A DNA stretch of 64,000 bases. Origin: Burkholderia cepacia GG4. Lineage in GTDB: Bacteria; Pseudomonadota; Gammaproteobacteria; Burkholderiales; Burkholderiaceae. The translations under genes and the position numbers were made by a program. Positions 7,470 to 37,526 of this stretch are shown here, in pieces. The notes under the pieces were generated by a model that ran no database searches, had not been told where the DNA came from, and saw only the letters and a program-made list of their open reading frames with translations. The stretch is from NCBI RefSeq assembly GCF_000292915.1, contig NC_018513.1, positions 1 through 64,000 on the forward strand. The letters run 5' to 3'. The number at the start of each line of letters is the position of its first letter. Position 1 is the first letter of the stretch.

Positions 7470-8696
7470 ATGAGCCTCCTTGCATCCCAGCTTCAGCGCC
7501 GTTACCAGGACGTGCGCGCCCATAGCGTCGCGTTGACGGCGACGCTATCCGCTGAAGACCAGGCCGTGCAGTCGATGCCCGACGCGAGTCCGGTGAAATG
7601 GCATCTCGCGCATACGACCTGGTTCTTCGAAACCGTCGTGCTGATGCGCCGCGTGCGCGGCTACGCACCGTTCGACGACGCGTTCCAGTTCCTCTTCAAC
7701 TCCTATTACGAAGCGCTCGGCCCGCGCCATCCGCGGCCGCAGCGTGGGCTGCTTACGCGTCCGTCGCTCGATGAGGTGCATGCGTACCGGCAGCACGTCG
7801 ACGAAGCGATGCTGCGCGCGCTCACCGATGCCGATCCGGCGTGGCTCGCCGCGATCGCGCCCGAGGTCGAGCTCGGCCTGCATCACGAGCAGCAGCACCA
7901 GGAGCTGATCGTCACGGACATGCTGCATGCGTTCTCGTGCAACCCGCTGAAGCCGGCATTCCGGCCGCGCGACGCGGCCGACCCGCAAGCCGCGCTGGCC
8001 GTGGGCGACGCCGGTCCGTTGCGCTGGCTGCACCAGCCGGGCGGGCTTGTCGAGATCGGCCACGACGGCGACGCGTTTTCGTTCGACAACGAACGGCCGC
8101 GCCATACGGCGCTCGTCCAGCCTTGCGAGATCGCGAACCGTCTCGTGACGAATGCGGAATTTGCGGCCTTCATCGCGGACGGCGGCTACCAACGCCCCGA
8201 ATACTGGTTGTCCGACGGCTGGGCGACGGTGCAGCGGGAAGGGTGGCGAGGGCCCGCGTACTGGATTCCCGACGACGACGGTGCGATAGCCCCGCGCGAC
8301 TGGCGCACGTTCGGCCTGCACGGCGTGGCGCCGTTCGCGCCCGATGCGCCCGTGTGTCACGTGAGTTTCTACGAAGCAGCCGCGTATGCGGAATGGGCCG
8401 GTGCACGCCTGCCGACCGAATTCGAATGGGAAGCCGCGTTCGACACGGACGGCATCCGGCAGATGCTCGGCCACGTGTGGCAGTGGACGCGTTCGTCCTA
8501 CGAGCCGTACCCGGGTTTTCGGCCGCTCGCGGGCGTCGCTGCCGAATACAACGGCAAGTTCATGGTCGGCCAGCAGGTCCTGCGCGGCAGCAGCATCGCG
8601 ACGCCGCCGGGGCACGAACGGCCGACGTACCGCAATTTCTTTCCGCCGGCCGCGCGCTGGCAATTCACGGGAGTGCGACTTGCGCGAGACGTCTGA
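7470..8696 (+). CDS. egtB: ergothioneine biosynthesis protein EgtB (sulfoxide synthase)
   Basis: A 408-residue non-heme iron enzyme. The N-terminal DinB-like domain holds HLAHTTWFFE (about residues 44-53) and HHEQQHQE (about 138-145), which together supply the three-histidine iron site. The C-terminal half is a formylglycine-generating-enzyme/sulfatase-modifying fold (RLPTEFEWE, VWQWTRSSY, VLRGSS). EgtB joins a sulfur donor (gamma-glutamylcysteine or cysteine) to hercynine. The start is the ATG encoding MSLLASQ, since the upstream in-frame extension lacks family resemblance. It overlaps egtD by 17 bp. No egtA, egtC or egtE is nearby, as is common in proteobacteria. Confidence 0.92.
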   Translation: MSLLASQLQRRYQDVRAHSVALTATLSAEDQAVQSMPDASPVKWHLAHTTWFFETVVLMRRVRGYAPFDDAFQFLFNSYYEALGPRHPRPQRGLLTRPSLDEVHAYRQHVDEAMLRALTDADPAWLAAIAPEVELGLHHEQQHQELIVTDMLHAFSCNPLKPAFRPRDAADPQAALAVGDAGPLRWLHQPGGLVEIGHDGDAFSFDNERPRHTALVQPCEIANRLVTNAEFAAFIADGGYQRPEYWLSDGWATVQREGWRGPAYWIPDDDGAIAPRDWRTFGLHGVAPFAPDAPVCHVSFYEAAAYAEWAGARLPTEFEWEAAFDTDGIRQMLGHVWQWTRSSYEPYPGFRPLAGVAAEYNGKFMVGQQVLRGSSIATPPGHERPTYRNFFPPAARWQFTGVRLARDV

Positions 8697-23994: not shown

Positions 23995-24642
23995 TTGATC
24001 AGCAGAACTACAGTTGCGATTGTGGACGACCATCCGATGGTGCTCGCGCTGATCGGAAGCCTTACGCAATGGACACAAAACTTCCACATTGTTCATCGTT
24101 GCAGTAATGGTGCGGCGCTGCTCGAGGCACTGGCCGCGTTCCCGACCGATCTCGCGATCGTCGACTATGCAATGAGTCGCGGCGACAACCCGCTCGACGG
24201 CTTCATGCTGCTGCGGAAGCTGCGCGATACCATGCCGGGCGTACGCTGCGTGATGTTTACGGCCCAGACGAATCCGAGCGTGTTCGCCTCCGCGATACGG
24301 CTCGGCGTTGCCGGGATCGTCAGCAAGGAGGACGAGGTCAGCGAAATCGTGCGTGCTTGCCAGTTTGTCCGTGCCGGCGGCACCCGCTATTTCTCGCCGG
24401 CCGTTCGCGCAATCGTCGAGCAGGCGGGCGCGACTGCGTACGAGAATCAACCCGAGCTCACCCAGAAGGAACTCGAAGTCGTACGGCTGTTCGTATCGGG
24501 GCATTCGCTCGCCAGCATCGCAAAGCAGCTCGGTCGTTCGGTCAGCACCGTGTCGACGCAGAAATATATGGCGATGCAAAAGCTGCAGGCCGATTCGAAC
24601 ACATGCCTAATCCGGTACGCATACGAAACCGGGCTCATATGA
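23995..24642 (+). CDS. LuxR/NarL-family response regulator (fimbrial regulator candidate)
   Basis: A 215-residue protein. The receiver domain has VDDHPMV (acidic pocket near residues 9-12), phospho-acceptor Asp in LAIVDYAM (near 56), a conserved FTA switch (VMFTAQT) and Lys in IVSKEDE. The LuxR-type helix-turn-helix is at about 150-205 (LTQKELEVVRLFVSG, SLASIAKQLGRSVSTV). The start is a TTG at 23995 after GGAAAA; no better start is visible. No histidine kinase is adjacent, so it is an orphan. It converges on the fimbrial operon and resembles regulators such as FimZ/BfmR, so control of the fimbriae is a reasonable inference. Confidence 0.88.
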   Translation: MISRTTVAIVDDHPMVLALIGSLTQWTQNFHIVHRCSNGAALLEALAAFPTDLAIVDYAMSRGDNPLDGFMLLRKLRDTMPGVRCVMFTAQTNPSVFASAIRLGVAGIVSKEDEVSEIVRACQFVRAGGTRYFSPAVRAIVEQAGATAYENQPELTQKELEVVRLFVSGHSLASIAKQLGRSVSTVSTQKYMAMQKLQADSNTCLIRYAYETGLI

Positions 24643-24703: not shown

Positions 24704-25741
24704 CTATCGATAGATGATCGTAAACGTCGCGGTCGCGGCCGCGGATCCGGGCCTGGCCTTTGCCGCCGTCTGGTAATAGCGCGCGGACAACGGAACATTC
24801 ACGACGGTCGAGGTGGCCGGCGTATCCGCAACCTGCCACGGCGTGCCGAATCTGACAGGCTGGTTGTTCTCGGCTCGACCCTTGAGCACCTGCACGCCGA
24901 TGCCCAACGCATCGCTCGACGACGACAGCGCCAGCACGCCCGCATCCGGCACGGCGACGCTGCCGTCCAGCATCAGGTTCACGACGAATTCGCCGGCGAT
25001 ACCGGAGTCGCATTTCAGGCCGATCGTGAAATCCTTGGCTGCCGACGTGGAGCCGACGCCCGATCCCAGGCCGGCAAATGCATTCAGCGTATGCGGGCCG
25101 AGCGGAACCGAGATCGCCTTGTTCGTCGCATCGCAGGTGGTAGCCTGAAATGAAATATTGTCGGCGCCGTAAGTAAAAAAGGGCGCGGCGCTCGCCTTCT
25201 TGCGGGGATTTCCGATCAGCGCCGTGGCGAACGCAGTGAACGGAAATGGCTCGTGTGTCGAAGGCGTCGGGCCTGTCTTGACCAGCTCGACGTCCACGAT
25301 TGCCGTCACCGGCGTTGTCTTGATGGGGTAGTACAGATTGACCATGACGCCGGTGGGCATGGCCGCTTCCGTGGAACCGCGGTTGCCGTTATAGGTGAGC
25401 ATCAGCGACAGCCCGTTGCCGATGTAGAGCGACGGCCGCATCACCATCGCTTCGACGGGCGGATCCAGGATATCGGCAAGGCCGCAGTCCGCGGTGATCT
25501 TGATGCCGGTCTTGCGCCACAGCACCGTATTGATCGGTACATCCGAGGAAACCTTGAACACCTTAGGCAGCTCGCCGAGCCGGGTCAGGCTCGTTGCCGT
25601 GCATTTCAGCGCGAATGCGTTACCGATCCCCACGCTCCACAGCAGCAGCGCGCAGCCGGCCGCGCGCCAGATGCCGGCTGCGACGTGCGGCCGTGGCCCG
25701 GCAAGTTGTCGCGGTGTCGCTTCGAGATTGCTCCAGTTCAT
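24704..25741 (-). CDS. fimbrial tip adhesin / minor fimbrial subunit
   Basis: A 345-residue exported protein with an N-terminal hydrophobic signal (GIWRAAGCALLLWSVGIG, cleavage near AFA at about residue 45). An N-terminal domain of about 150 residues is followed by a C-terminal pilin domain ending in alternating strands (SARYYQTAAKARPGSA, ATFTIIYR), which suits donor-strand exchange. The two-domain layout fits FimH-type adhesins encoded last in chaperone-usher operons. The ATG overlaps the usher stop as ATGA; a GTG two codons upstream is an alternative. The receptor is unknown. Confidence 0.82.
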   Translation of the reverse strand: MNWSNLEATPRQLAGPRPHVAAGIWRAAGCALLLWSVGIGNAFALKCTATSLTRLGELPKVFKVSSDVPINTVLWRKTGIKITADCGLADILDPPVEAMVMRPSLYIGNGLSLMLTYNGNRGSTEAAMPTGVMVNLYYPIKTTPVTAIVDVELVKTGPTPSTHEPFPFTAFATALIGNPRKKASAAPFFTYGADNISFQATTCDATNKAISVPLGPHTLNAFAGLGSGVGSTSAAKDFTIGLKCDSGIAGEFVVNLMLDGSVAVPDAGVLALSSSSDALGIGVQVLKGRAENNQPVRFGTPWQVADTPATSTVVNVPLSARYYQTAAKARPGSAAATATFTIIYR

Positions 25742-28422
25742 TTCCACTCCGATTGCGTGTTGCTTGTGGGCTGATTCGCGCGAATGTCCGTCTCTGCTGT
25801 CGGGCTGGTGGTGATGTCGCAGCGCGCGTCGGTCCGCGCGATGCTCATCCGGCTCGCTTGCGTATCAAGCGGCGGCACCGCAACCTGCATCGCGCATTGC
25901 CACGCGTCCGCGTGCCCCCATTTCACCGTGAGGCGCTCGTTCGACCCGCTCAGTCGCGCATAGACCTGGCCCCCCTGAGTCACCATGCCGACGCTGCTGC
26001 CGTTGCCGTCGAATACGGGGGCGCCGAACGGCAGCGACGAACCGTCGGGCAGCGACGCATGAATCAGCACCGGCCGGCCCTCGACGGTCGGATAACGGAG
26101 CATCACGGTTGCGCCGGCGCGCGGCGCGACCTGTTGGCTCGTCGTGCGCAATTCGACGTCGTCGGGCAGGCCGCGCGGGTCGATCGCGATCTCGTTGACG
26201 CGATACGGCGTGAGATACGGAACCACTGCGTACCCGCGCGGATCCAGCTTGACGCCACCATAGCCGATGACGGTCGCGCCGCGGGCGGACGGCGCAGCGA
26301 CGATCGCGATCGTGTCCGCCGTATAGGGCGATGCCGTGACGCCGGCCGGATGCGCAACGACCGTCCCGTTGATGCCGATCGACCCGGATCCGTAATGCTC
26401 CCCCTTGCCGAACGCCGCCTTGAACGCCGCATAGGGGGTTCGGTATTCGCCCGACAGGTTCCCCGAGTAACCCATGTCGGGATCGCGCGCCGTGGAGATC
26501 GAATAGCTTGCCTGATTGTCGGCGCCGGCAAGCCCGCTGACGGTCGCGGTCGCCCGGATGCCGCCTTCCGTGTTGTGCCCGACCGTGATGGCCGACCGTG
26601 GTACCTTGATCGACCGCCCGAGCGGCAGCGACGCGCTGAACATCGTTTGCGTGTCGAATTGCCCGCCCGAGAGCCGTGACCGGCTGACGTTGACGCTGTA
26701 GTCGATGTTCCGATAGCGATTGCTGTAACCGATCTGGAACTGCGTATCCGTGCCGGCGCGCTCCCAATAGTTTTGCGTAAAGCCGCTCGCGTAGACCTGT
26801 CCCCACTTGTCGCCAAGCGGCTGGGTCGCGGTGATCGCCACGCGATTGCGGGTGCGCCACAGCGCCGTGGCCGACGAGGCGGTCACGTTGCGCTTTGCAT
26901 TGTCGACGTAGGTCAGCGCATTGCTGAAATCCAGATAGCCTGACGACGAGAAGCGATAGGCGGCAACCGACAGGTTGCTGCCGGTCGGCTCGAACAGCTT
27001 GCTGTACGTGACGCGAACGCTCATGCCCTGCTGGCTGCGCCCGGCCGACGAGGTGCGGGCGCCGGATACGTCGAATGCCAGCGCGCCGTAGCGTGTGTTG
27101 AATGCGCTACCCGCCATCACGTTCTGGTAGTGCTCGTTTGCGAGCACGCCACCGTACAGCGTCAACAGGTTGTTCACGCCTCGATGCAGCGTCGCCTGCA
27201 GCACGCTCGGCGTGTACGACAGGTTCATGTTGCGCACGGTGCCGGCGACGAGGCTGAAGCGGGTCATGCCCGGACGCAACGATTGCGCGACGGCCGCATA
27301 GGGCACCTGCGACGTGCGCTTGCTGCCGTCCGATTCCGTGATCGTGACGTCGAGATTGCCGCCGTAGCCCGTCGGATAGAGATCATCGATCACGAAGGGG
27401 CCGGGCGGGACGGACGTGTCGTAGAGCACCACGCCGCCCTGCCGGACGGTCACGCGTGCGTTCGAGTTCGCGATGCCGTGCACGACGGGCGCATAGCCGC
27501 GCAGCGAATCCGGCCGCATGCGATCGTCGGTCGCGATCTGGACGCCCCGGAACGCGAACGTGTCGAACAGTTCGCCGGACGTGTTCGCGTCGCCGAGCGT
27601 CAGGCGAGCATCGAGCCGCTCGATGTCACGCTGCACGTAGGTATTGACGACGCCGTAGTGCCGCTTGTCGTGCTGCTGCCAGTTCAGCGCACCGTCGTGA
27701 CGGAAATACCAGCCGCCTGCATTGACGCCCGCATTCACCCCGACGTAAGCGGAATTCGATCCGAAGCCGCTCGCGACGTTGCGATAGACGTTCGCGCTAT
27801 AGCCGAGCATCGCGGACGTCACGCCAGCATCCCAGCTCGACGGATCGACATAGCCGCGCGCGACGCGACGCAGCATTGCCTGCGCGATGCCGACGTCGAG
27901 CCGCGCCTCGCCCGCGTCGAACGACACGGTCGCGCCCGGTACCGCACGCGACAACGGGATGCAGGCGGCCGGATCGGCCAGTTCGTCGAGCACGGCGGGG
28001 GGGAGCCGGCCGACATCGACATTGACTGCTTCGAGCAGGCGTCGATCGAAACAGATCAGCGCCCCGTCGTCGCCGTCGCGCACCGTGACGTCTTTGCGTC
28101 CAATCAGGTTGCCGTTGACATAGATGTCCGGACGGTAACTGCCGGGCCAGACCGGGCTGCCCTTCTCGTACCGGGCCAGATCGATGCTGCCGCCGGGTTC
28201 CGTCACGAAGAAATCGGGATTGAAGGTGACTTGCGCGACCTGTATCGCGCTACCGTCTTTTCCCGGGCTCGTGTGCGGCGGAATATCGGGCGAGGTGTGC
28301 TGGCCGCCGGCTGCCGTGAGCGGGATGGCGGAGTATGCCAGCATCACCAGCACATGCGACCGGCTTAGCGCGGGCATCGGCGTGCTGGCGAGCGTCCGGG
28401 TGGCGCGAGGGGCTTGCTTCAT
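25738..28422 (-). CDS. fimD: fimbrial outer-membrane usher
   Basis: An 894-residue usher that forms the outer-membrane pore and assembles fimbrial subunits. Visible features are an N-terminal periplasmic domain (FNPDFF, LARYEKG, YRPDIYVNG near residues 67-105), the long beta-barrel region interrupted by the plug, and paired C-terminal domains (the Cys pair near CAMQVAVPP and ARCDITT). Length is typical of PapC/FimD ushers (about 800-880). It is in an operon with chaperone, pilin and adhesin. The symbol is used by family analogy. Confidence 0.92.
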   Translation of the reverse strand: MKQAPRATRTLASTPMPALSRSHVLVMLAYSAIPLTAAGGQHTSPDIPPHTSPGKDGSAIQVAQVTFNPDFFVTEPGGSIDLARYEKGSPVWPGSYRPDIYVNGNLIGRKDVTVRDGDDGALICFDRRLLEAVNVDVGRLPPAVLDELADPAACIPLSRAVPGATVSFDAGEARLDVGIAQAMLRRVARGYVDPSSWDAGVTSAMLGYSANVYRNVASGFGSNSAYVGVNAGVNAGGWYFRHDGALNWQQHDKRHYGVVNTYVQRDIERLDARLTLGDANTSGELFDTFAFRGVQIATDDRMRPDSLRGYAPVVHGIANSNARVTVRQGGVVLYDTSVPPGPFVIDDLYPTGYGGNLDVTITESDGSKRTSQVPYAAVAQSLRPGMTRFSLVAGTVRNMNLSYTPSVLQATLHRGVNNLLTLYGGVLANEHYQNVMAGSAFNTRYGALAFDVSGARTSSAGRSQQGMSVRVTYSKLFEPTGSNLSVAAYRFSSSGYLDFSNALTYVDNAKRNVTASSATALWRTRNRVAITATQPLGDKWGQVYASGFTQNYWERAGTDTQFQIGYSNRYRNIDYSVNVSRSRLSGGQFDTQTMFSASLPLGRSIKVPRSAITVGHNTEGGIRATATVSGLAGADNQASYSISTARDPDMGYSGNLSGEYRTPYAAFKAAFGKGEHYGSGSIGINGTVVAHPAGVTASPYTADTIAIVAAPSARGATVIGYGGVKLDPRGYAVVPYLTPYRVNEIAIDPRGLPDDVELRTTSQQVAPRAGATVMLRYPTVEGRPVLIHASLPDGSSLPFGAPVFDGNGSSVGMVTQGGQVYARLSGSNERLTVKWGHADAWQCAMQVAVPPLDTQASRMSIARTDARCDITTSPTAETDIRANQPTSNTQSEWK

Positions 28423-29515: not shown

Positions 29516-30055
29516 TTACAGGTACTCGATCGCGTAGGTAACCGACGTGCTCACGCCCCCGCCCTTGACAGCGTCTTTCGCGTAATACTGTGCGCCGTAA
29601 GACAGCGTCGCCGAGTTGTTGACGACTTTGACCGACGGACCGGTACGCTGGCCACTATCGCCAGCCTTCAGCGCGAGTCCGTCCATACCGAGCAGCTGCA
29701 CCGCCACGTTGGTTGCCGCATCGGTTGCCGCGCGGTTGATCAGCGTGCCGTCCGTCCCGTCGACGTTGGGGCCGGCCTCGAAATAAGCGCGCGCCGATTT
29801 GCCGCCTCCCGTGCAACCGCTCAGCTCGATCGTGAAGTTCGTCCCGCCGGCCACGCTCCCCTTCGTGGCGAGTTTCGATGCTGCCACCGACGGCAATGAC
29901 ACGGTCGCATTCGGGCCCGCGTTGTTGATCGACACGTTGCAGGTCGCGCCGTTGATCGTGCCGGTGAAGGTTACCGTGCCGTCCGATGCCTGGGCGGCGA
30001 TCGGCAGAGCCGAGAAAGCGACCGCCAGAGCGGTCAATGCAAGTTTCGTTTTCAT
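29516..30055 (-). CDS. fimA: major fimbrial subunit (type 1 pilin)
   Basis: A 179-residue pilin with a signal peptide (MKTKLALTALAVAFSALPIA, cleavage after QAS near residue 24). The mature N-terminus (DGTVTFTGTINGATCNV) supplies the donor strand. The first Cys pairs with a second in ELSGCTGGG, the usual pilin disulfide. The C-terminus (YYAKDAVKGGG, SVTYAIEYL) has the penultimate-tyrosine beta-zipper pattern recognised by chaperone and usher. A good AGGAA ribosome site precedes the ATG. It is the first gene of the fimbrial operon and is followed immediately by a strong stem-loop. Confidence 0.93.
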   Translation of the reverse strand: MKTKLALTALAVAFSALPIAAQASDGTVTFTGTINGATCNVSINNAGPNATVSLPSVAASKLATKGSVAGGTNFTIELSGCTGGGKSARAYFEAGPNVDGTDGTLINRAATDAATNVAVQLLGMDGLALKAGDSGQRTGPSVKVVNNSATLSYGAQYYAKDAVKGGGVSTSVTYAIEYL

Positions 30056-30282: not shown

Positions 30283-30534
30283 TTAACGTGTACCGAAAAG
30301 GCGGCCGATCGCGAAGATCGAGCCGACGATCGCGATACCCACGGCGACGATGCCCTTGCCGATCGACTCGACAACACCGGTCTGGCCGCCCGGTGCCGGC
30401 ATCGGGCTTTCCCACGGCTTCTCGAGCTTGCCGCTCGGCGGTTTCATCAGGTTGTTGATGAAGTCGACAATGGCGGAGGCGGAGATAGCGCCGCCCGATA
30501 CCGACTTGCACTCGGTCAGGTTCAGATCACGCAT
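30283..30534 (-). CDS. double-glycine-leader microcin-like peptide B
   Basis: An 83-residue precursor. The leader MRDLNLTECKSVSGG (15 residues) has the length and ending of microcin V-type leaders that are removed by C39 peptidases. The predicted 68-residue mature peptide has a helical start (AISASAIVDFINNLM), a proline-rich middle (KPPSGKLEKPWESPMPAPGG) and a strongly hydrophobic C-terminus with spaced glycines (GIVAVGIAIVGSIFAIGRLFG), suited to membrane insertion. The only Cys is in the leader. The ATG follows GGAAC; an in-frame ATG five codons upstream would spoil the leader. It lies 49 bp after peptide A and likely shares its transcript. Confidence 0.8.
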   Translation of the reverse strand: MRDLNLTECKSVSGGAISASAIVDFINNLMKPPSGKLEKPWESPMPAPGGQTGVVESIGKGIVAVGIAIVGSIFAIGRLFGTR

Positions 30535-30583
30535 GATTCGTTGTTCCATTGGATTGAAGGTTGGACTGATGGCGCGACGCGGC

Positions 30584-30901
30584 TCAGCGCGGTGCGGGCG
30601 AGCTCGGATCGAAGAGGCTTTCCATGGCCTTGTCGAACCACTTGGTCGTTTGTGTCGCATCGTTGATGACGCCGTACAGCACACCGCCGACCAGGCCGAG
30701 CACGCCACCGCAGATCATCCCGACACCGGCGGCAATCGAACCCATGCCGAGCAGGCCGGGACCGGCATTCCCGCCCGACACGCCACCCTTCCACGCACCT
30801 TCGATCAAGCCGGTCACGCCGCCCACCACCGATGCGCCGATACGGCTGAAAAAGCCACCGCCGCTCACCGCGTCCAGTTCCATCGACGTCAATTCACGCA
30901 T
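30584..30901 (-). CDS. double-glycine-leader microcin-like peptide A
   Basis: A 105-residue precursor. The leader MRELTSMELDAVSGG (15 residues) closely follows the microcin V leader pattern (MR-L-T--EL--VSGG). The 90-residue mature part is rich in glycine with repeated GxxxG spacings (VVGGVTGLIEGAWKGG, GMGSIAAGVGMICGGVLGLV) and one Cys, then a polar C-terminus ending PSSPAPR. This hydrophobic, glycine-zipper core is typical of class II bacteriocins. A strong AAGGAG ribosome site precedes the ATG. It is the first gene after the C39-peptidase ABC exporter gene, so it is presumably cleaved and exported by it. Confidence 0.85.
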   Translation of the reverse strand: MRELTSMELDAVSGGGFFSRIGASVVGGVTGLIEGAWKGGVSGGNAGPGLLGMGSIAAGVGMICGGVLGLVGGVLYGVINDATQTTKWFDKAMESLFDPSSPAPR

Positions 30902-31001
30902 TGTCTTGCTCCTTGCTGGTATGTGCCGATCATCGAAGGCCGGATCGGCGTCGGCCGTCCCGCCACGCGGTGCGTGACGGAGATTCTCGTCTCCAGTCGC
31001 C

Positions 31002-33152
31002 CTATGCCGCTTCCGGCGCGAGCAACGGTTCGATGTCCGCTTCGCGCGCCTTTCCGTGGGCGAGCACGATCACCCTGTCCGCGCTGCGGATCGTCTCGGG
31101 CCGGTGCGCGATGATGATCCGCGTGACGTTCATCGCGCGCACGGCGTCGTTGATCAGCCGTTCGCGCTCGACGTCGAGGTGGCTCGTCGCCTCGTCGAGA
31201 ACGAGGATCGCGGGCCGTCGATAGAACGCTCGCGCGAGCAGCACGCGCTGGCATTGCCCGCCCGACAGCGACGATCCCATGTCGCCGACGAGGCTCTGAT
31301 AGCCCATCGGCATCGCGACGATGTCGTCGTGAACCTGGGCGAGGCGGGCGGCCTCTTCGACGCGGGCCTGATCGGGCTGTGGATCGAAGAAGCCGATGTT
31401 GTCGGCAATCGAGCCCGCGAACAGGATGTCGTCCTGCATCACGCAGCCAATCAGCTCGCGATACGGGTGCAAACCGAGCTTGCGGATATCGACGCCGTCC
31501 ACCAGCACGCTGCCGTGCTCGGGCGTCAGCAGGCCCAGCAGCAGCTTGACCATCGTCGTCTTGCCCTGGCCGGATGGGCCGACGAGTGCGACCGATTCGC
31601 CGGGCGCGATCGAAAACGAGCAGTCGTCGAGCACCCATGGCTCCGTTTCCGCGTAGCGGAAGCGCACGCCGCGTACGTCGAGCGCCGGTGGCGCGACGCG
31701 GTCGTCAAACGAAGACGGCCGCGCGGCCTTCGCCTCCATGTCGGCCTCGACATCGGTGAGCACGATGTCGGCGAGGCGTTCGCCGTGCAGCCGCAGCATC
31801 CGGAAGTCGATTGCCGTCGCGATCAATCCCGCGCCGCGCGCCATGAACTGGTCGGCAAAGCTGATGAACGCGACCAGCATCCCCGCCGAGAACTGCCCGT
31901 CGAGCACCTGTTTCGCGGCGAGCCAGACGAGCACCACACGACCGGCGCCGGAAATCACGCCCTGCAGCGTCGAGAAACCGATCGACAGACGCTGGATCGC
32001 GACGTGCTTGTTGGTCGCTTCGACGACGGCGTTCGCGTAGGTCGCCACGCGTGCTTCTTGCTGGTTTGCGAGCTTGATCGCCTGCACGCCGCGAATCGAT
32101 TCGAGCAGGTTCGATTGCGCGCGCGCGTCGTAGACGATCTGTTCCTCGTGTGCCTGCCGGAACGGGCGGTACGCGATCCAGCGGATCACGCCGTAAGCGG
32201 CGAACAGGCCAAGCACGAGCCACGTCAGCGTCGGGCTGTAGACGAACAGCATCGCGAGCGTCACGGTCGCCATCACGCCGTCGAGCAGCGCGCCGACGAA
32301 CTGCGTCGTGAGCGTGCTCTGGATCGTGTTGAGCGCGCCGAACCGCGATATGACGTCACCGATGTGGCGCTGCTCGAAATACGTCATCGGCAGCCTGAAC
32401 AGGTGCGCGCAGACGTTCGCGGTCCACTGCACGCCGAGCAGGCTCGAGAACCACGTGACGACCCACGATCGCAGCGCGGACATCGCGCTCTGGAACAGCA
32501 CGACCAGCAGGAACCCGATGCCGAGCAGCGTCAGCAGATCAGCATCAGCCGATACCAGCACCTGGTCCATCACCCACTGCATGTAGAACGGCGTAATCAC
32601 GCCGAACACCTCCAGCGCCGCCGACAGCAGCAACACCTGCGCAAAGACCGCGCGGATGCCCGTCACACCGCCGATCAGCCGCGTCATCGAGATCGATTCG
32701 CTTCCCTCCGCAGGCCTGAACGACGGCGACGGCATCAGCTCCAGCGCGACACCGGTGAAGTGATCGGACACCTCGGCGAGCGGCACGTCGCGTATGCCGC
32801 GCGCAGGATCGTGGATCGTGATCTTGCCGCGCGACACCGACTTCAGCACGACGAAGTGGTTCATGTCCCAGTGCAGGATGCACGGGCGGCGCAGCTGGCC
32901 GAGTTCGTCGAGCTCGAGCCGCAGTGCGCGCGATGCAAGGCCGAGCCGATAGGCGATCAGCATCACGTCGTTGAGTGTCGCGCCTTTCAGCGACGGGCTG
33001 AAGCGGCGCCGCAGGCTGACGAGGTCGATGTGGTGGCCGAAATAGCCGGCGACCATCCCGACACAGGCGAGGCCGCACTCGGCTGCCTGGGTCTGCAACA
33101 GCATCGGCAGGCGCCGGCGCCAGCCAAATTGCAACGCGTCGATCCATTTCAT
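31002..33152 (-). CDS. peptidase-containing ABC transporter (C39 domain; bacteriocin exporter)
   Basis: A 716-residue CvaB-like transporter. The N-terminal C39 cysteine peptidase has the catalytic Cys in QTQAAECGLACVGM (near residue 26), His in HWDMNHFVVL (near 100) and Asp in TIHDPARG. The six-helix membrane domain covers about 160-430. The nucleotide-binding domain has GPSGQGKTT (near 525), LSGGQCQR (near 627) and ILVLDEATS (near 647). All catalytic residues are present. It would cut double-glycine leaders and export the peptides across the inner membrane. The ATG encoding MKWIDAL is chosen although its ribosome site is weak; the frame can extend to 33227, overlapping the adaptor gene. Confidence 0.93.
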   Translation of the reverse strand: MKWIDALQFGWRRRLPMLLQTQAAECGLACVGMVAGYFGHHIDLVSLRRRFSPSLKGATLNDVMLIAYRLGLASRALRLELDELGQLRRPCILHWDMNHFVVLKSVSRGKITIHDPARGIRDVPLAEVSDHFTGVALELMPSPSFRPAEGSESISMTRLIGGVTGIRAVFAQVLLLSAALEVFGVITPFYMQWVMDQVLVSADADLLTLLGIGFLLVVLFQSAMSALRSWVVTWFSSLLGVQWTANVCAHLFRLPMTYFEQRHIGDVISRFGALNTIQSTLTTQFVGALLDGVMATVTLAMLFVYSPTLTWLVLGLFAAYGVIRWIAYRPFRQAHEEQIVYDARAQSNLLESIRGVQAIKLANQQEARVATYANAVVEATNKHVAIQRLSIGFSTLQGVISGAGRVVLVWLAAKQVLDGQFSAGMLVAFISFADQFMARGAGLIATAIDFRMLRLHGERLADIVLTDVEADMEAKAARPSSFDDRVAPPALDVRGVRFRYAETEPWVLDDCSFSIAPGESVALVGPSGQGKTTMVKLLLGLLTPEHGSVLVDGVDIRKLGLHPYRELIGCVMQDDILFAGSIADNIGFFDPQPDQARVEEAARLAQVHDDIVAMPMGYQSLVGDMGSSLSGGQCQRVLLARAFYRRPAILVLDEATSHLDVERERLINDAVRAMNVTRIIIAHRPETIRSADRVIVLAHGKAREADIEPLLAPEAA

Positions 33153-33198
33153 TGTTCGTGTGGACTGGGTAACGAGTGTTTCGGGGTGAGCGGGGCAG

Positions 33199-34458
33199 TC
33201 ATGTCGACGCGCGGCGACCGAGCGCATACAGCGGCTCGAGCACCCACTCGATCAGCCGGCGCTTGTCGATCAGCACGTCCGCTTCGAGCGCCATTCCCGG
33301 ACGCAGCGCTTCGCGCTTGCCGTAGGCGAGGATGTCCTGCCGGTCGAGCGCAACGACGACCCGGTACAGTTGCTCGCGCACGTCCGTTCGTCCGGTGAGG
33401 TTCGCGGCTTCCTGCGGCGTAAGCGCGGTACGCGAAACTTCGGTCACGCGGCCGAACTGCTGCCCGAACTTCTGGAACGGATAGGCCTCGTAGCGCAGCA
33501 CGACGCGCGCTCCCGGCCGCACGAAGCCGATCGCGCGGCTCGGCACCATCAGCCGGGCTTCGAGCTGCGTGCCCTGCGGCAACAGCGACACGAGTGACTG
33601 GCCGGCATTGACGGTTTGCCCGGGCTTCGCGAGCAGCGCTGCGACGACGCTCGCCTGAGGGGCGCGCAGGATGATCGCGCGGCGCGCCTCGTTCTCGGCG
33701 AGCGACTGATCGATATCGGCAAGCTTGCGTGCGATCTCGTTCTGCTGGTTGCGGGTCGTGAGCGGCAGTTCACGCAACTGCTGGCGAATCTGGTCGAGCT
33801 GCTGCTCGACGTCGAGGCGCTGTCGTGCGAGATCCTGCAGCCGTGCTTGCGTGTCGAGCAGCGCAGCTTCCTGTTGCTCGACCTGGGTGTTCGACACGTA
33901 ACCCTGCTCGCGCATCGACTGCAGCTTGTCGAGCTGCCGTTGCGCGAGATCGACCTGGCGCGTCCGTTGCGCCTTTTGCAGCGCGATCTGTGCGAGTTGC
34001 TCGTCGAGTGCGACCGCACGTGCGTGCAGCCCGCGCTTCGCCTCGTCGCTCAACTGCGATTGGCCGGCGAGGTCGGTTTCCAGGCGCGAACGCTGAAACC
34101 TGAGTTGCCTGGCGACCATTTCCCGCGTGCCGCCGAATTCGGTCGCGACTTCGGCCGAGATCGCCAACAGTTCGGCGCCGGCCGCTACCGTCTGCCCCTC
34201 GCGTACCCGTGACTCGAGCACGGTGCCCATCATCGGCGGCGCGACGCTCAGCAGTCCGTGGGTCGGCAGCAGCTGGCCAGCGACGCGCTCGCGCTTCGTA
34301 TAGGTGCCGAACACCAGCAATGCGACGATCGCAAACGTCAATGCGGTCGCCACGCCGATCATCAGCCAGCGGTACGGCGGCGAATACAGGCTGACCGTGC
34401 CCATCAGCTTGTGTTTCGTCGCGTCGAGCGCCTCCTGGCGGAACAGTCCGTCGGTCAT
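33199..34458 (-). CDS. HlyD-family membrane fusion protein (CvaA-like)
   Basis: A 419-residue periplasmic adaptor of the type I exporter. It has a short cytoplasmic start, a transmembrane helix near residues 35-57 (WLMIGVATALTFAIVALLVF) and a split lipoyl domain (MMGTVLESRVREGQTVAAG and the later LRAPQASVVAALLAKPGQTV). A long coiled-coil hairpin (about 130-270, many Leu/Gln heptads) separates the two lipoyl halves, and a beta-barrel C-terminus follows. It links the C39 ABC transporter to the outer-membrane channel. Its ATG overlaps the stop of the channel gene as ATGA. Confidence 0.92.
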   Translation of the reverse strand: MTDGLFRQEALDATKHKLMGTVSLYSPPYRWLMIGVATALTFAIVALLVFGTYTKRERVAGQLLPTHGLLSVAPPMMGTVLESRVREGQTVAAGAELLAISAEVATEFGGTREMVARQLRFQRSRLETDLAGQSQLSDEAKRGLHARAVALDEQLAQIALQKAQRTRQVDLAQRQLDKLQSMREQGYVSNTQVEQQEAALLDTQARLQDLARQRLDVEQQLDQIRQQLRELPLTTRNQQNEIARKLADIDQSLAENEARRAIILRAPQASVVAALLAKPGQTVNAGQSLVSLLPQGTQLEARLMVPSRAIGFVRPGARVVLRYEAYPFQKFGQQFGRVTEVSRTALTPQEAANLTGRTDVREQLYRVVVALDRQDILAYGKREALRPGMALEADVLIDKRRLIEWVLEPLYALGRRAST

Positions 34459-35828
34459 GCGCGTCGCCCCTCCGGCGCGGGCACGGCCGCAAGCGGTCGA
34501 TGCCGCGGATCGCACGCGATCGCGGCTACGTCCGCGTCGCCGAGCGTGCCGAGCGCGGCGGACAGCTGCAGCCGCGCACGCAGGTAGCGATAGCGCGCGT
34601 CGGCGAGATCGCGGATTGCCTCGAAATACCGCTGCTCCGCATTGAGTTCGTCGATCTGCGTGCGCAGGCCGACGCCGCGCCCCACTCGCGTCGACTTCAC
34701 CTTGCTGTCGGCCGATGCGAGCGCGCGTTCGCGCGCCCGCATCAGCGCAAGGCCGTTCGTGATACCGAGATGCGCGGTGCGCGCCAACTCGCGTGCCTTG
34801 CGACGGGCATCCTCGAGCGCCTCGAGAGACTGGCTGCGGCGCCGGTATGCTTCGCGCGACACCGACAGCGGGCCGCCTCCCGCGAAGAGCGGGATCGTGA
34901 CGGTCACGCCGATCATGGTCGAGCGGGTTTTCGACGTCGTGCCGAATACCTGGTCCCAGACGTTTTCATTGGCGCCGCGGCTCCACTGGGTGCCGTAGCT
35001 CGCCTGCAGGTTGACAACCGGCAAATGTGCGCCGGTCGCCGCGACGATGTCGGCCTTCGACCGGTCGACCGCCTTCTCGGCGATGCGCACGTCGAGGTTT
35101 TCGCGCGCGGCTTCGTCCATCGCGCTCACGAGGTCGACGGGCATCGCCTGCGGCACGCATTGCCATGCGATCTGCGCGAGATCGTCGGCGGGCAGACCGG
35201 TCAACCGTCGAAATGTACCGCGCGCGACCTCCAGGTCACTTTGCGCTGCAATCCTGCGAGCGAGCGCGTCGTCCCGATTCGCCTGTGCCTCGTCGATGTC
35301 GGTGCGCGTGCCGTCGCCGACCTTCAATGCCGCCTGTGCCTGGTCGAGCTGCTTCTGGAAGGCGTGCTGGGCCGTGTCGGCGGCTTGCAGGACTTCTCGC
35401 GTGTACAGCACCTCAAAGTAGGCATCGGATACATCGGTGACGAGCGTCTGGCTGGCCTTCTCGTAGTCGACGTCGGCCTGGCCGGCGAGCGCGTTGCCGC
35501 GCTGAAAGTCGGCCATGCGGTTCATGTCGAACAGGGGCTGCGTGATGCTTGCAACCGCGCTGTGGCGGCGGACGGCGGCCGCATAGGCGGCCGTCGGTTG
35601 ATCCTGCCTGATGTAGTCGCCTTCAAGCTGCGCACGCGGCAGCAGGCCGGCGAGACCCTGCCAGCGCTTTTCGCGGCCGGCCAGTTGCGCATCGTGCGCA
35701 GCGGCGATTCCCGCGTCGAAACCGCGGGCTGCGTGTACCGCGTTGAGCAGGTCCACGGCGGCCGCCGGCCACGCTGCCGCGAGAGATCCAAGCGCGGCAG
35801 CGAGCCGCAACGTACCAATAGAAATCAT
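34455..35828 (-). CDS. TolC-like outer-membrane channel of the bacteriocin exporter
   Basis: A 457-residue outer-membrane efflux protein with a signal peptide (MISIGTLRLAAALGSLAAAW, cleavage after AAA near residue 24). It has the duplicated TolC pattern of two beta-barrel strand pairs and long helices (ITQPLFDMNRMADF and VTIPLFAGGGPLSV are the paired strand-helix junctions). The ATG follows AAGGCAG. It is the first gene of the exporter operon, so the locus encodes its own channel rather than borrowing the housekeeping TolC as microcin V does. Confidence 0.92.
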   Translation of the reverse strand: MISIGTLRLAAALGSLAAAWPAAAVDLLNAVHAARGFDAGIAAAHDAQLAGREKRWQGLAGLLPRAQLEGDYIRQDQPTAAYAAAVRRHSAVASITQPLFDMNRMADFQRGNALAGQADVDYEKASQTLVTDVSDAYFEVLYTREVLQAADTAQHAFQKQLDQAQAALKVGDGTRTDIDEAQANRDDALARRIAAQSDLEVARGTFRRLTGLPADDLAQIAWQCVPQAMPVDLVSAMDEAARENLDVRIAEKAVDRSKADIVAATGAHLPVVNLQASYGTQWSRGANENVWDQVFGTTSKTRSTMIGVTVTIPLFAGGGPLSVSREAYRRRSQSLEALEDARRKARELARTAHLGITNGLALMRARERALASADSKVKSTRVGRGVGLRTQIDELNAEQRYFEAIRDLADARYRYLRARLQLSAALGTLGDADVAAIACDPRHRPLAAVPAPEGRRA

Positions 35829-36351
35829 CTGCCTTGATGCACCGGACGCCGGACAAACCGGGACGATCCGTTCGCCACTCGTTCCTGGGAAGCGAGCAAT
35901 TCTCGGGCAGTGCGAGTCGACCCGATATCGCCGTTCGTCCAATTTTCGGCTGGTCCTTGCAAGGTTGCGAGGAACGGAATGCGACCGAGCAGCGAGCTGA
36001 AGTAACGGCACGCTGTGCGAAGCACAGTCATGTTCGTTACTGCAATGGAGAACACTGAAGAAATCGGGTTGGTGCGAAATGCCGCCGGATCTACAGCTTG
36101 ACAGGCCTCACCAGTTGCGCTGGCAGCACGAGTGCTCTCATGTTCGTAGCAATCAACGTCGTGTCTGAGCAACCCCAGCGAAAATTGGATGTTTCGCTAT
36201 AGATTCGATGTTTATTTGGGAATATTTCCAAGTGTGGGCAGCGTTGCACTTGCCTATTTTCCGTAAATGTGAGAGTTGATTTTTATTTCGCTCTCATCGA
36301 CCGAATCGTTAATTCATGGTGAGGGGGCGACGTTTTTGGAGGTGGCGCCGC
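35829..36351. other. divergent intergenic region, becoming AT-rich toward 36351
   Basis: About 520 bases between the exporter operon (leftward) and the JmjC-like gene (rightward). GC content drops markedly after about 36170. It should hold the promoters of both transcription units, but no element matches consensus well enough to name. Confidence 0.5.
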
Positions 36352-36897
36352 ATGACTGAATTGAATATGAATGCCGGCCATTTTGTTGAAAACTATTTCG
36401 ACGAACGTCCCGTTATATTTGAGGAAGCATTGCGAAATAATTTTTTGTCGTGGGATGAGATATCGGAGGCGATATATATTTGTGAATCGGTGACTCAGTG
36501 GCCGAGATTAAATAGGGGAGGGTTTTTTGATGAATCGAAATATATCGAAAACTGCGGCGAGTCGGGGCAGGTCAGACGTAGACTTGACAAGAGCGCGCTA
36601 TACGACGAACTTTGTAATGGAACAACCCTGGTATTCAATCGAATGGAGTTGGCATCATATAAAGTCAGGTTGATATATAAAGCGATATCGAGGTTTGTTG
36701 GTGAACATGCTGTTGCGAATGGATGTATCACATTTGGAAAGGATGGGTCATTTGGAAAGCACTGGGGCACGCAATATGATTTAATTAAATACATCATCGA
36801 CTGGATTTCCAGAAACAAAATGGAGGTCAACGATATAACCATGTACAACGCCATGAGCGACTTTAACAACCAAGGAAACGAAGCAGATGGTCAGTGA
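36352..36897 (+). CDS. truncated/degenerate JmjC (cupin-like) hydroxylase-type protein
   Basis: A 181-residue AT-rich gene. The start HFVENYFDERPVIFEEALR matches the N-terminus of JmjC/cupin_4 oxygenases (FLENYW-KRPLL pattern). NGTTLVFNRMELAS corresponds to their TLVLNR segment, and KDGSFGKHWGTQYD aligns with the metal-binding block usually read as FGPHWDTHDVF. Here the first His is kept, but the Asp and second His are Gly and Gln. The protein ends about 40 residues later instead of continuing through the cupin barrel, so iron binding is probably lost. The ATG follows GGAGGTG; a longer frame starts at 36316. Family assignment is by eye and tentative. Confidence 0.6.
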   Translation: MTELNMNAGHFVENYFDERPVIFEEALRNNFLSWDEISEAIYICESVTQWPRLNRGGFFDESKYIENCGESGQVRRRLDKSALYDELCNGTTLVFNRMELASYKVRLIYKAISRFVGEHAVANGCITFGKDGSFGKHWGTQYDLIKYIIDWISRNKMEVNDITMYNAMSDFNNQGNEADGQ

Positions 36898-37037
36898 TTT
36901 TTGATGGCGCCGCTCACTTTAGAGTGCCCAGCAGAGGCGGGCAGGAGTTTGCCGCAAATCTCAAGTGCTTCATTTTTTGAATATTTTGTTGGCGAGTTTT
37001 GTCTGGAAATTGTTCCTTGAGTGAGCGGCGAATTGCA

Positions 37038-37526
37038 ATGAAAAACGGTCACGACAACAGCGTGATTCACGCTATCTCACACAGCCCGGCGCTCGTTTCG
37101 GCGCTTCTGACTTGGGCTCTCACGTACATTTCCGGCATTTTTGTCTGGGGTGCCCAATTCGTATTCGAACGCCCATTCGGACCGTCTTCCAGTGTGCTAC
37201 CGGAAATAATGCGGTACGGCCTACTGACTCGCCTGCTTGTCGGCTCACTTGTTGCGCCGATAGTGGAAACATTTCTTTTCCAGTTGCTGCCCATTCGGTT
37301 GATTCGGCGGGTGCCCGGAGCGAGTGTTTGGACAGCCATCAGCGCTTCAACTCTTGTGTTCGGTGCAACGCACGGCTACAGCGTCCTGTATGTGACAGTC
37401 GCTTTATGGGGCGGGCTGGTCTTCGCAACGGTCTTCGTGCTGCGTGATCACCCCGGTGGCCGTCCCTTTCTGGTTGTCGCCACTGCCCATGCCGCCCGCA
37501 ACACGCTGGCGAGCATCCTCATCTGA
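37038..37526 (+). CDS. CPBP-family intramembrane protease-like protein (bacteriocin immunity candidate)
   Basis: A 162-residue membrane protein with four hydrophobic segments. CPBP (CAAX/Abi) motifs are recognisable. Motif 1, usually EExxxR, appears as VETFLFQ (near residues 76-82), keeping the first Glu but with Thr and Gln at the other positions. Motif 2 is FGATH (near 112), and the final motif is AHAARN (near 150). CPBP/Abi proteins are frequent self-immunity factors in class II bacteriocin loci. Its position next to the exporter operon makes it the best immunity candidate here; this is inference. It converges with fliR. Confidence 0.75.
   Translation: MKNGHDNSVIHAISHSPALVSALLTWALTYISGIFVWGAQFVFERPFGPSSSVLPEIMRYGLLTRLLVGSLVAPIVETFLFQLLPIRLIRRVPGASVWTAISASTLVFGATHGYSVLYVTVALWGGLVFATVFVLRDHPGGRPFLVVATAHAARNTLASILI

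What the first reader, a model, noticed from the sequence alone, without database searches (positions are those of the whole stretch)
30283..37526. Undescribed two-peptide, microcin-like bacteriocin locus with a full dedicated exporter
Two consecutive small genes encode peptides with 15-residue MR-L-T-EL--VSGG leaders, the pattern of microcin V-type class II microcins. They lie directly downstream of a C39-peptidase ABC transporter with an intact Cys/His/Asp triad, an HlyD adaptor and a TolC-like channel, in overlapping operon order. A CPBP membrane protein typical of bacteriocin immunity sits divergently. Microcin V-type systems are best known from Enterobacteriaceae and use the housekeeping TolC; here the channel is encoded too. 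Function as an antibacterial weapon is an inference, and novelty is to my knowledge.
Basis: partly seen in the sequence, partly recalled or inferred. Interest (0 to 1): 0.95.

Follow-up and report, generated by a model that had tools for sequence, protein, structure and literature searches.

The report
Pilus-coupled two-peptide contact weapon
This stretch of a Burkholderia chromosome carries a gene set, shared with Pantoea and some other enterobacteria, that joins an export machine and two small peptides to an adhesive pilus, and it likely lets the cell hold a neighbouring bacterium and attack it on contact.

Summary
Directly downstream, same strand, lies a complete chaperone-usher pilus (FimA, chaperone, usher, tip adhesin), then a LuxR-type regulator. 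Pilus genes follow the peptides at 9 of 9 strong pep1 places in 8 of 65 Burkholderia genomes (fimA at 8, an adhesin at the ninth), in 7 of 8 pep1 genomes of an enterobacterial family (8 of 295 searched), and in 38 of 44 plasmid records. Of six plasmid exceptions five were opened: cassette pilus and exporter are missing together. The exporter clade has an usher within 12 kb in 12 of 14 Burkholderia places, other C39 exporters in 0 of 32; five of the 14 lack pep1. Pep1 is a glycine-zipper peptide that meets published criteria for Cdz-like contact bacteriocins; pep2 does so partly. The CPBP protein is not the conserved immunity gene: 6 of 8 pep1 genomes lack it. No conserved immunity gene was found, so killing is unproven and a biofilm or surface role stays open. 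A 2017 paper mentioned fimbriae near Cdz-like systems in passing; in my searches a fixed pilus-peptide cassette is undescribed.

The parts
30584..30901 (-). pep1: 105-aa precursor, 15-residue double-glycine leader, 90-residue glycine-zipper core
   Evidence: ORF; family of 115 proteins, 102 of them 103-107 aa, 114 with a GxxxGxxxG stretch unbroken by P, D, E, K or R
30283..30534 (-). pep2: 83-aa precursor, same kind of leader, Pro-rich linker, C-terminal hydrophobic helix
   Evidence: ORF; alignment of 13 positional homologues; hydropathy
31002..33152 (-). C39-peptidase ABC transporter (predicted leader peptidase and export motor)
   Evidence: Pfam; catalytic residues kept in 14 of 14 loci with the exporter
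33199..34458 (-). HlyD-type periplasmic adaptor
   Evidence: Pfam; TIGR01843 below its cutoff
34455..35828 (-). TolC-type outer-membrane channel
   Evidence: PF02321; TIGR01844 above cutoff; start chosen at 35828
29516..30055 (-). FimA-type major pilin
   Evidence: PF16970 49 bits (cutoff 30) and PF00419
28527..29333 (-). periplasmic pilus chaperone (start approximate; ORF open to 29483)
   Evidence: PapD_N 148.6 bits, PapD_C 50.3 bits
25738..28422 (-). outer-membrane usher
   Evidence: Usher 538 bits, PapC_N, PapC_C
24704..25747 (-). predicted two-domain tip adhesin (pilin domain at C-terminus, unassigned N-terminal domain)
   Evidence: PF00419 54.5 bits; fold search of a pLDDT 68 model lists FimH, CupB6, CsuE, LpfD first, with low TM-scores of 0.2-0.3
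23995..24642 (+). LuxR-type response regulator, nearest RcsB and FimZ models, convergent with the cassette
   Evidence: Pfam; NCBIfam (below cutoffs); a LuxR-type regulator is in each of the 13 loci mapped
36999..37526 (+). CPBP membrane protein; beside the cassette, not a conserved part of it
   Evidence: PF02517; 4 of 65 genomes; contexts
36316..36897 (+). orf193, no family match; beside the cassette, not a conserved part of it
   Evidence: lies with CPBP and fliR in L065

Best explanation
The window holds one copy of a conserved gene cassette in which a C39-peptidase type I exporter and two double-glycine peptides are encoded together with a complete chaperone-usher pilus and its predicted tip adhesin, and the cassette likely works as a contact weapon in which the pilus would hold a neighbouring cell and the exported peptides would then damage its membrane. 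Shown: the genes, their order and strand, the intact C39 catalytic residues, the shared leader, and the repeated linkage of peptides, exporter and pilus in Burkholderia, Pantoea and other enterobacteria. Inferred: cleavage after GG, export of both peptides by this exporter, surface retention through the glycine zipper, membrane damage in the bound cell, and joint control by the LuxR-type regulator. Pep1 would be the zipper subunit and pep2 a partner with one membrane helix.
For: Linkage: in Burkholderia fimA follows pep2 on the same strand after 181-237 bp at 8 of 9 strong pep1 places, and at the ninth (L031) a FimH-like adhesin follows pep2 after 152 bp. In the family of G716, 7 of 8 pep1 genomes (8 of 295 searched) have pep1-fimA-chaperone-usher-adhesin, with pep2 between in 6 of the 7. 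Plasmids: 38 of 44 pep1 records carry the cassette usher, and the 37 closest ushers listed all lie in pep1 records, about 2 kb away by the coordinates I compared in the two listings. Exporter clade of 74% identity or more: 12 of 14 places have a listed usher within 12 kb, other C39 exporters 0 of 32. Pantoea has another gene order (peptides first, exporter last), and copies lie on chromosomes and plasmids, which argues against one frozen neighbourhood. Joint loss: at the locus G057 and G016 lack peptides and pilus together; five plasmids opened lack cassette pilus and exporter together. Bacteriocin-like cargo: zipper enrichment, published Cdz criteria met by pep1, profile match, leader included, to other Burkholderia GG peptides (E 2.4e-15), peptides at 62% and 51% mean identity where the exporter has 89% (five loci), and arrays of 3 and 4 GG peptides before fimA in L096 and L099.
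Against: No immunity gene is conserved in the cassette; a toxin system would normally need one. Gaps inside the 12 full cassettes mapped are at most 261 bp, but I ran no conservation test for small ORFs in them. Pep2 has no significant zipper (P 0.37). G018 keeps the pilus at the same site without exporter or peptides, so the pilus can exist alone. Five of the 14 exporter-clade places in Burkholderia have no pep1 (G009, G011, G016, G053, G057); three of these and B. stagnalis L053 lie beside other pilus clusters with no pep1 or pep2 found. Weak pep1-like pairs in L086 and L087 have no pilus found nearby. Adhesin and pilin diverge fast too (60% and 65%), so rate is not specific to toxins. Linkage counts are not corrected for shared descent. 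No activity data exist.
Confidence: 0.45

Rival explanations
1. The peptides are not toxins but secreted surface or matrix proteins that help pilus-bearing cells stick together and form biofilm, as the EbfG double-glycine proteins exported with the help of PteB do in Synechococcus.
For: No conserved immunity gene found; steady linkage to an adhesive pilus and a LuxR-type regulator; glycine zippers can drive aggregation (PMC5380434); pep1 length is nearly constant (102 of 115); precedent in abstract and passages of PMC4997328; in 3 of 6 enterobacterial loci viewed a long ORF that looks like an autotransporter by eye follows the adhesin (no family search made).
Against: Peptides vary more than the exporter; arrays with 3-4 peptides; profile similarity to bacteriocin-like peptides.
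Confidence: 0.3
2. A diffusible class II microcin-like pair exported by a dedicated system, with the pilus a neighbour of no functional relevance.
For: Leader, C39 exporter, small glycine-rich core; weak MccV, DUF5862 and Bacteriocin_IIc matches in some members.
Against: Pilus linkage in several taxa, two gene orders and different replicons, with joint losses; MccV model below cutoff; TolC is encoded and no immunity gene is conserved.
Confidence: 0.12
3. The linkage is a by-product of shared mobility: adhesin islands and bacteriocin islands accumulate at the same hot spots and are kept together by descent.
For: Shared chromosomal site beside fliR in several Burkholderia; AT-rich stretch 36000-37500; Pantoea plasmids of what looks like one lineage (rep_cluster_807 in seven of the eight Pantoea records opened); the 2017 paper notes island features near Cdz-like systems.
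Against: Same-strand order pep1-pep2-fimA-chaperone-usher-adhesin is kept between Burkholderia and Pantoea or Pluralibacter although pilin, chaperone and usher share only 38-48%; in Pantoea the exporter is at the other end yet present; 0 of 32 other C39 exporters lie near a listed usher.
Confidence: 0.13

Closest known systems
Cdz system (CdzABCDI) of Caulobacter crescentus and Cdz-like systems (PMC5380434)
   Same: Type I exporter plus two small adjacent glycine-rich peptides with G[G/A] leaders; pep1 meets the paper's sequence criteria; B. cepacia and Serratia marcescens named there as carriers; the paper says many Cdz-like regions include adhesion genes such as thin aggregative fimbriae, and its discussion mentions fimbrial adhesins
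   Different: The paper says the Caulobacter cluster lacks such adhesion genes; here a complete chaperone-usher pilus is built into the unit, TolC is encoded, no CdzI-like gene is conserved, pep2 lacks a clear zipper
Class II microcins (MccV type)
   Same: Double-glycine leader, C39 ABC exporter, HlyD adaptor
   Different: Pfam MccV model not reached; TolC encoded in the cluster; two peptides; no conserved immunity gene; pilus present
EbfG1-4 / PteB of Synechococcus elongatus (PMC4997328)
   Same: Several small GG-motif proteins whose secretion needs a C39-type peptidase transporter, with a biofilm role
   Different: I saw no chaperone-usher pilus described with them in the passages read; no sequence comparison was made here
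Chaperone-usher pili with two-domain tip adhesin (FimH, CupB6, LpfD)
   Same: FimA, chaperone, usher, adhesin all present
   Different: Known pili of this kind are not encoded with a C39 exporter and GG peptides (recalled; the rows listed by my literature searches held no such report)

Membership tests
Class II microcin, MccV type | Pfam PF17508 above its gathering score | tested here: not met
   16.6 bits, cutoff 27; best of 17 members E 0.0011
Class II microcin, MccV type | Double-glycine leader and C39 exporter with Cys/His/Asp | tested here: met
Class II microcin, MccV type | Cognate immunity gene near the peptide (passages of PMC9746304) | tested here: inconclusive
   CPBP not found in 6 of 8 pep1 genomes; no other conserved gene in the maps; gaps not tested for small ORFs
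Cdz-like contact bacteriocin (criteria of PMC5380434) | 60-151 residues and leader ending G[G/A/S] | tested here: met
   105 and 83 aa, both GG
Cdz-like contact bacteriocin | One or two glycine zippers not interrupted by Pro or charge | tested here: inconclusive
   pep1 met; pep2 not enriched, P 0.37
Cdz-like contact bacteriocin | Short charged or polar C-terminus; type I exporter within 10 kb | tested here: met
   sequence, judged by eye; exporter gene 100 bp away
Cdz-like contact bacteriocin | Contact-dependent killing by both peptides, with immunity | not testable with these tools
   needs competition assays
Cdz-like contact bacteriocin | Sequence similarity to CdzC/CdzD themselves | not tested
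   Their sequences were not retrieved; the paper says BLAST with them found no hits
Class IIb two-peptide bacteriocin | Both peptides with GxxxG motifs and joint activity | tested here: inconclusive
   pep1 10 GxxxG, pep2 2; activity not testable
Chaperone-usher pilus | Pilin, PapD-type chaperone, usher, adhesin above Pfam cutoffs | tested here: met
   (adhesin by its C-terminal pilin domain)
EbfG/PteB biofilm proteins | GG proteins needed for biofilm | not testable with these tools
   no phenotype data

The most novel reading that the evidence does not exclude
A hard-wired grapple-and-kill system: one cassette encodes an adhesin-tipped chaperone-usher pilus that chooses and holds the target cell, and a dedicated exporter that loads a glycine-zipper two-peptide pore former onto the contact zone, with target range set by swapping adhesin and peptides. 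It would be the first contact-dependent antibacterial system whose own chaperone-usher pilus is part of the weapon.
Probability: 0.35. Interest if true: 0.85.

Novelty: new variant of a known kind. Interest (0 to 1): 0.62.

Why it matters
Cdz kills only on contact, and how cells with Cdz-like systems get and hold that contact is open; the 2017 authors only suggested that nearby adhesion genes could help. Here the adhesive organelle and the peptides form one conserved unit in two proteobacterial groups, including Pantoea vagans C9-1, a fire blight antagonist, so the idea becomes directly testable by single deletions. If the peptides are not toxins, the same unit is a new link between double-glycine peptide export and pilus-based adhesion. 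Either way a family of 115 proteins, most of them unnamed or 'hypothetical', gains a context.

Tried and rejected
CPBP as immunity gene: rejected as a conserved part; it cannot be excluded as a local immunity gene, since 3 of its 4 genomes (G000, G057, G069) have the exporter clade. MccV membership: rejected. Structure of pep1: model of mean pLDDT 60 with helices 17-44, 51-79 and 82-96, too weak to use. PDB by sequence: nothing for pep1 (best E 0.71). Adhesin target: the N-terminal domain gives no sequence match, and the fold matches have low TM-scores, so no receptor is proposed. PADLOC: no match for pep1, pep2, orf193 or CPBP. Sigma-70 scan: one promoter-like site between pep2 and fimA (30145-30118, -), 4 sites found in the region against 2.3 expected, so not used as evidence. 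Class-wide search: 1 of 369 genomes, the own one only, so the family is rare outside its lineages. Papers: in PMC3137637 (C9-1 genome), PMC9746304, PMC13101503 and PMC13174018 (class II microcins) the term 'fimbria' had no hit. Proteus contact killing (PMC8386478): abstract, outline and passages seen; no hit for fimbria, HlyD or TolC; not pursued.
Full report
WHAT IS THERE. On the minus strand the window reads TolC (35828-34455), HlyD (34458-33199), C39 ABC transporter (33152-31002), pep1 (30901-30584), pep2 (30534-30283), then FimA pilin (30055-29516), chaperone (about 29333-28527), usher (28422-25738) and a predicted two-domain adhesin (25747-24704); a LuxR-type response regulator (23995-24642) faces it. 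Gaps in that order are -4, 46, 100, 49, 227, 32, 104, -10 and 61 bp (the chaperone start is approximate). The finding stopped at pep2. All four pilus proteins pass Pfam cutoffs, the adhesin through its C-terminal pilin domain; its weak model (pLDDT 68) lists FimH, CupB6, CsuE and LpfD first, at low TM-scores. The regulator is nearest RcsB and FimZ models, below their cutoffs.

THE ORGANISM. 

THE PEPTIDES. Both carry a 15-residue leader ending GG, and the profile comparison of the two families aligns only that region, as expected for cargo of one exporter. Pep1 belongs to a tight family: 115 proteins at 90% clustering, itself included, 102 of 115 with 103-107 aa, 114 of 115 with a GxxxGxxxG stretch of 15 or more residues free of P, D, E, K and R (only the 7989 candidates sharing most words were scored). 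Names in the hit list include Burkholderia, Pantoea, Erwinia, Serratia, Mixta, Enterobacter, Gibbsiella, Intestinirhabdus, Paramixta and Andreprevotia; some are labelled 'Colicin V synthesis protein'. Window pep1 has 7 GxxxGxxxG against a shuffle mean of 1.08. Pep2 is more variable (24-48% to the window copy) but keeps its place before fimA and its plan: leader, short helix-like stretch, Pro-containing linker, C-terminal hydrophobic stretch. The window copy has no Pfam match and found only itself in the protein database search.

THE PILUS LINK IN BURKHOLDERIA. Of 65 genomes, 16 have pep1 matches at E 0.1 or better; nine places in eight genomes are strong (E 4.5e-27 or better). Of the 13 weaker places six were opened, and each holds another glycine-rich GG-leader peptide with no cassette pilus within about 10 kb. 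At 8 of the 9 strong places fimA-chaperone-usher-adhesin follows pep2; at the ninth, L031, a FimH-like adhesin follows and a different pilus cluster lies about 5-9 kb on. By usher: of 150 ushers listed (the list was cut), the nine of 49% identity or more are eight linked copies plus G018, where regulator, adhesin, usher, chaperone and fimA abut fliR with no exporter or peptides. By exporter: 14 places of 74% identity or more; 12 have a listed usher within 12 kb, against 0 of 32 C39 exporters of 41-55% identity (Fisher 2.3e-9; not corrected for descent; circular contigs were treated as linear). Nine of the 14 have pep1. The two places without an usher, G057 and G016, sit beside fliR and lack both pep1/pep2 and the pilus. 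The other three without pep1 (L058, L060, L061) and B. stagnalis L053 lie beside non-orthologous pilus clusters.

THE PILUS LINK ELSEWHERE. Pluralibacter MAG L049: same order, plus a third GG peptide after the adhesin. Three of 394 genomes of the order of that MAG match at E 1e-8, the MAG included; 8 of 295 of the family of G716 match at E 1e-20. Of these 8, seven have the pilus directly downstream of the peptides; six of the seven have exporter genes within the fetched stretch (not L096) and six of the seven a recognised pep2 (not L098). The eighth, G449, has a pep1 with a stop and neither pilus nor exporter. A distant case, G791 (L085), has five tandem pep1-like genes between a pilus cluster and HlyD-ABC, all on one strand. 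L086 and L087 hold weak pep1-like pairs with no pilus found, a result against strict linkage at that distance. Plasmids: 44 records with pep1 (43 Pantoea, 1 B. ubonensis pRF23); 38 have the cassette usher; the 37 listed ushers of 82% identity or more are all in pep1 records, the next being pRF23 itself at 46%, then 43% and below. Six Pantoea records lack it. Five were opened (CP134755 was not): no cassette pilus, cassette regulator or exporter is annotated, and pep1 lies next to the DcrB/FidL genes that flank the far end of intact copies. The annotated pep1 genes there have 65, 69, 72, 93 and 112 aa; pep2 is annotated in two. In two of the five (L069, L072) another pilus cluster lies 4-9 kb upstream on the other strand. 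In Pantoea the order is pep1-pep2-fimA-chaperone-usher-adhesin-regulator-TolC-HlyD-ABC-DcrB, so the same parts are arranged differently. A class-wide sample found pep1 in 1 of 369 genomes, the own one.

MECHANISM. Shown: exporter with intact C39 residues in 14 of 14 loci that have it, leader-bearing peptides, pilus. Inferred: peptides are cut after GG and pass through the tripartite channel; glycine zippers keep them at the surface; the pilus tip binds a partner cell; peptides act on its membrane. Two observations favour variable cargo over a structural pilus part: peptides average 62% and 51% identity while the exporter ABC protein averages 89% in the same five loci (HlyD 87, TolC 81, pilus proteins 60-70), and two enterobacterial loci carry 3 and 4 different GG peptides in a row before fimA. 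The main gap is immunity. CPBP and orf193 lie between fliR and TolC only in this genome among the loci mapped; both are beside fliR in G069, where the cassette is about 8.5 kb away, and CPBP remains in G012 where only a regulator stub is left. The stretch 36000-37500 has 44-57% GC against about 65% around it. Pantoea has a DcrB-domain gene after the exporter, not part of the Burkholderia maps.

KNOWN OR NEW. The closest known kind is Cdz (PMC5380434; abstract, outline, sections 13 and 32, and passages read). Its authors listed B. cepacia and Serratia marcescens among carriers, wrote that many regions include adhesion genes such as thin aggregative fimbriae that could aid delivery, and in the discussion mention CaaX proteases and fimbrial adhesins. 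Nine literature searches were answered over open-licence PMC papers only; among the rows listed no other paper on a chaperone-usher pilus encoded with a C39 exporter and GG peptides appeared. EbfG/PteB (PMC4997328, abstract and passages) is the precedent for the biofilm rival; the gonococcal Nap peptides (PMC11798529, abstract and outline) show bacteriocin-like peptides without detectable antimicrobial activity. I therefore rate the cassette a new variant of a known kind, with the killing function unproven.

Noticed in passing
36316-36897 (+): orf193, AT-rich, no match in Pfam, NCBIfam or PADLOC; a homologue beside CPBP and fliR in L065 matches in two separate pieces (73% and 63%).
   Followed up: partly
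L059 and L066: CPBP gene with two in-frame stops where peptides and pilus are absent (G057), but apparently open next to a truncated regulator where the whole cassette is absent (G012).
   Followed up: partly
L055 (G018): Natural variant with the pilus cluster at the same fliR site and no exporter or peptides.
   Followed up: yes
L062:8424-8723 (+): Different glycine-rich ORF with a GA-type leader-like start between exporter and regulator in G016, on the opposite strand to the exporter.
   Followed up: no
L049:15760-16017 (+): Third GG-leader peptide after the adhesin in the Pluralibacter MAG.
   Followed up: no
L085:9107-10837 (-): Five tandem pep1-like genes with HlyD-ABC and a pilus cluster on the same strand in a distant enterobacterium.
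   Followed up: partly
L099:1072-2180 (module orientation) and L096:9873-10706: Rows of four and three GG peptides before fimA; L096 has one more pep1-like stretch upstream (8446-8643).
   Followed up: partly
L096, L098, L099 after the adhesin: A 1038-1081 aa ORF that looks like an autotransporter by eye follows the adhesin; no family search was made.
   Followed up: no
L036 (G063): Exporter gene matched in two frames, a frameshift or sequencing error, with peptides and pilus kept.
   Followed up: no
L039-L044: Other Burkholderia glycine-rich GG peptides; two of the six loci (L042, L044) have a C39 exporter of about 55% identity, and no pilus was found by tblastn.
   Followed up: partly
P0009: B. 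ubonensis pep1 homologue named 'complement resistance protein TraT' by its source, perhaps a misnaming caused by the glycine zipper.
   Followed up: no
L052:23216-23650: DcrB-domain gene overlapping the end of the exporter gene in Pantoea, a possible accessory or immunity gene there.
   Followed up: partly
L067:14725-15386: The cassette's regulator gene is annotated as two CDS in Pantoea vagans C9-1.
   Followed up: no
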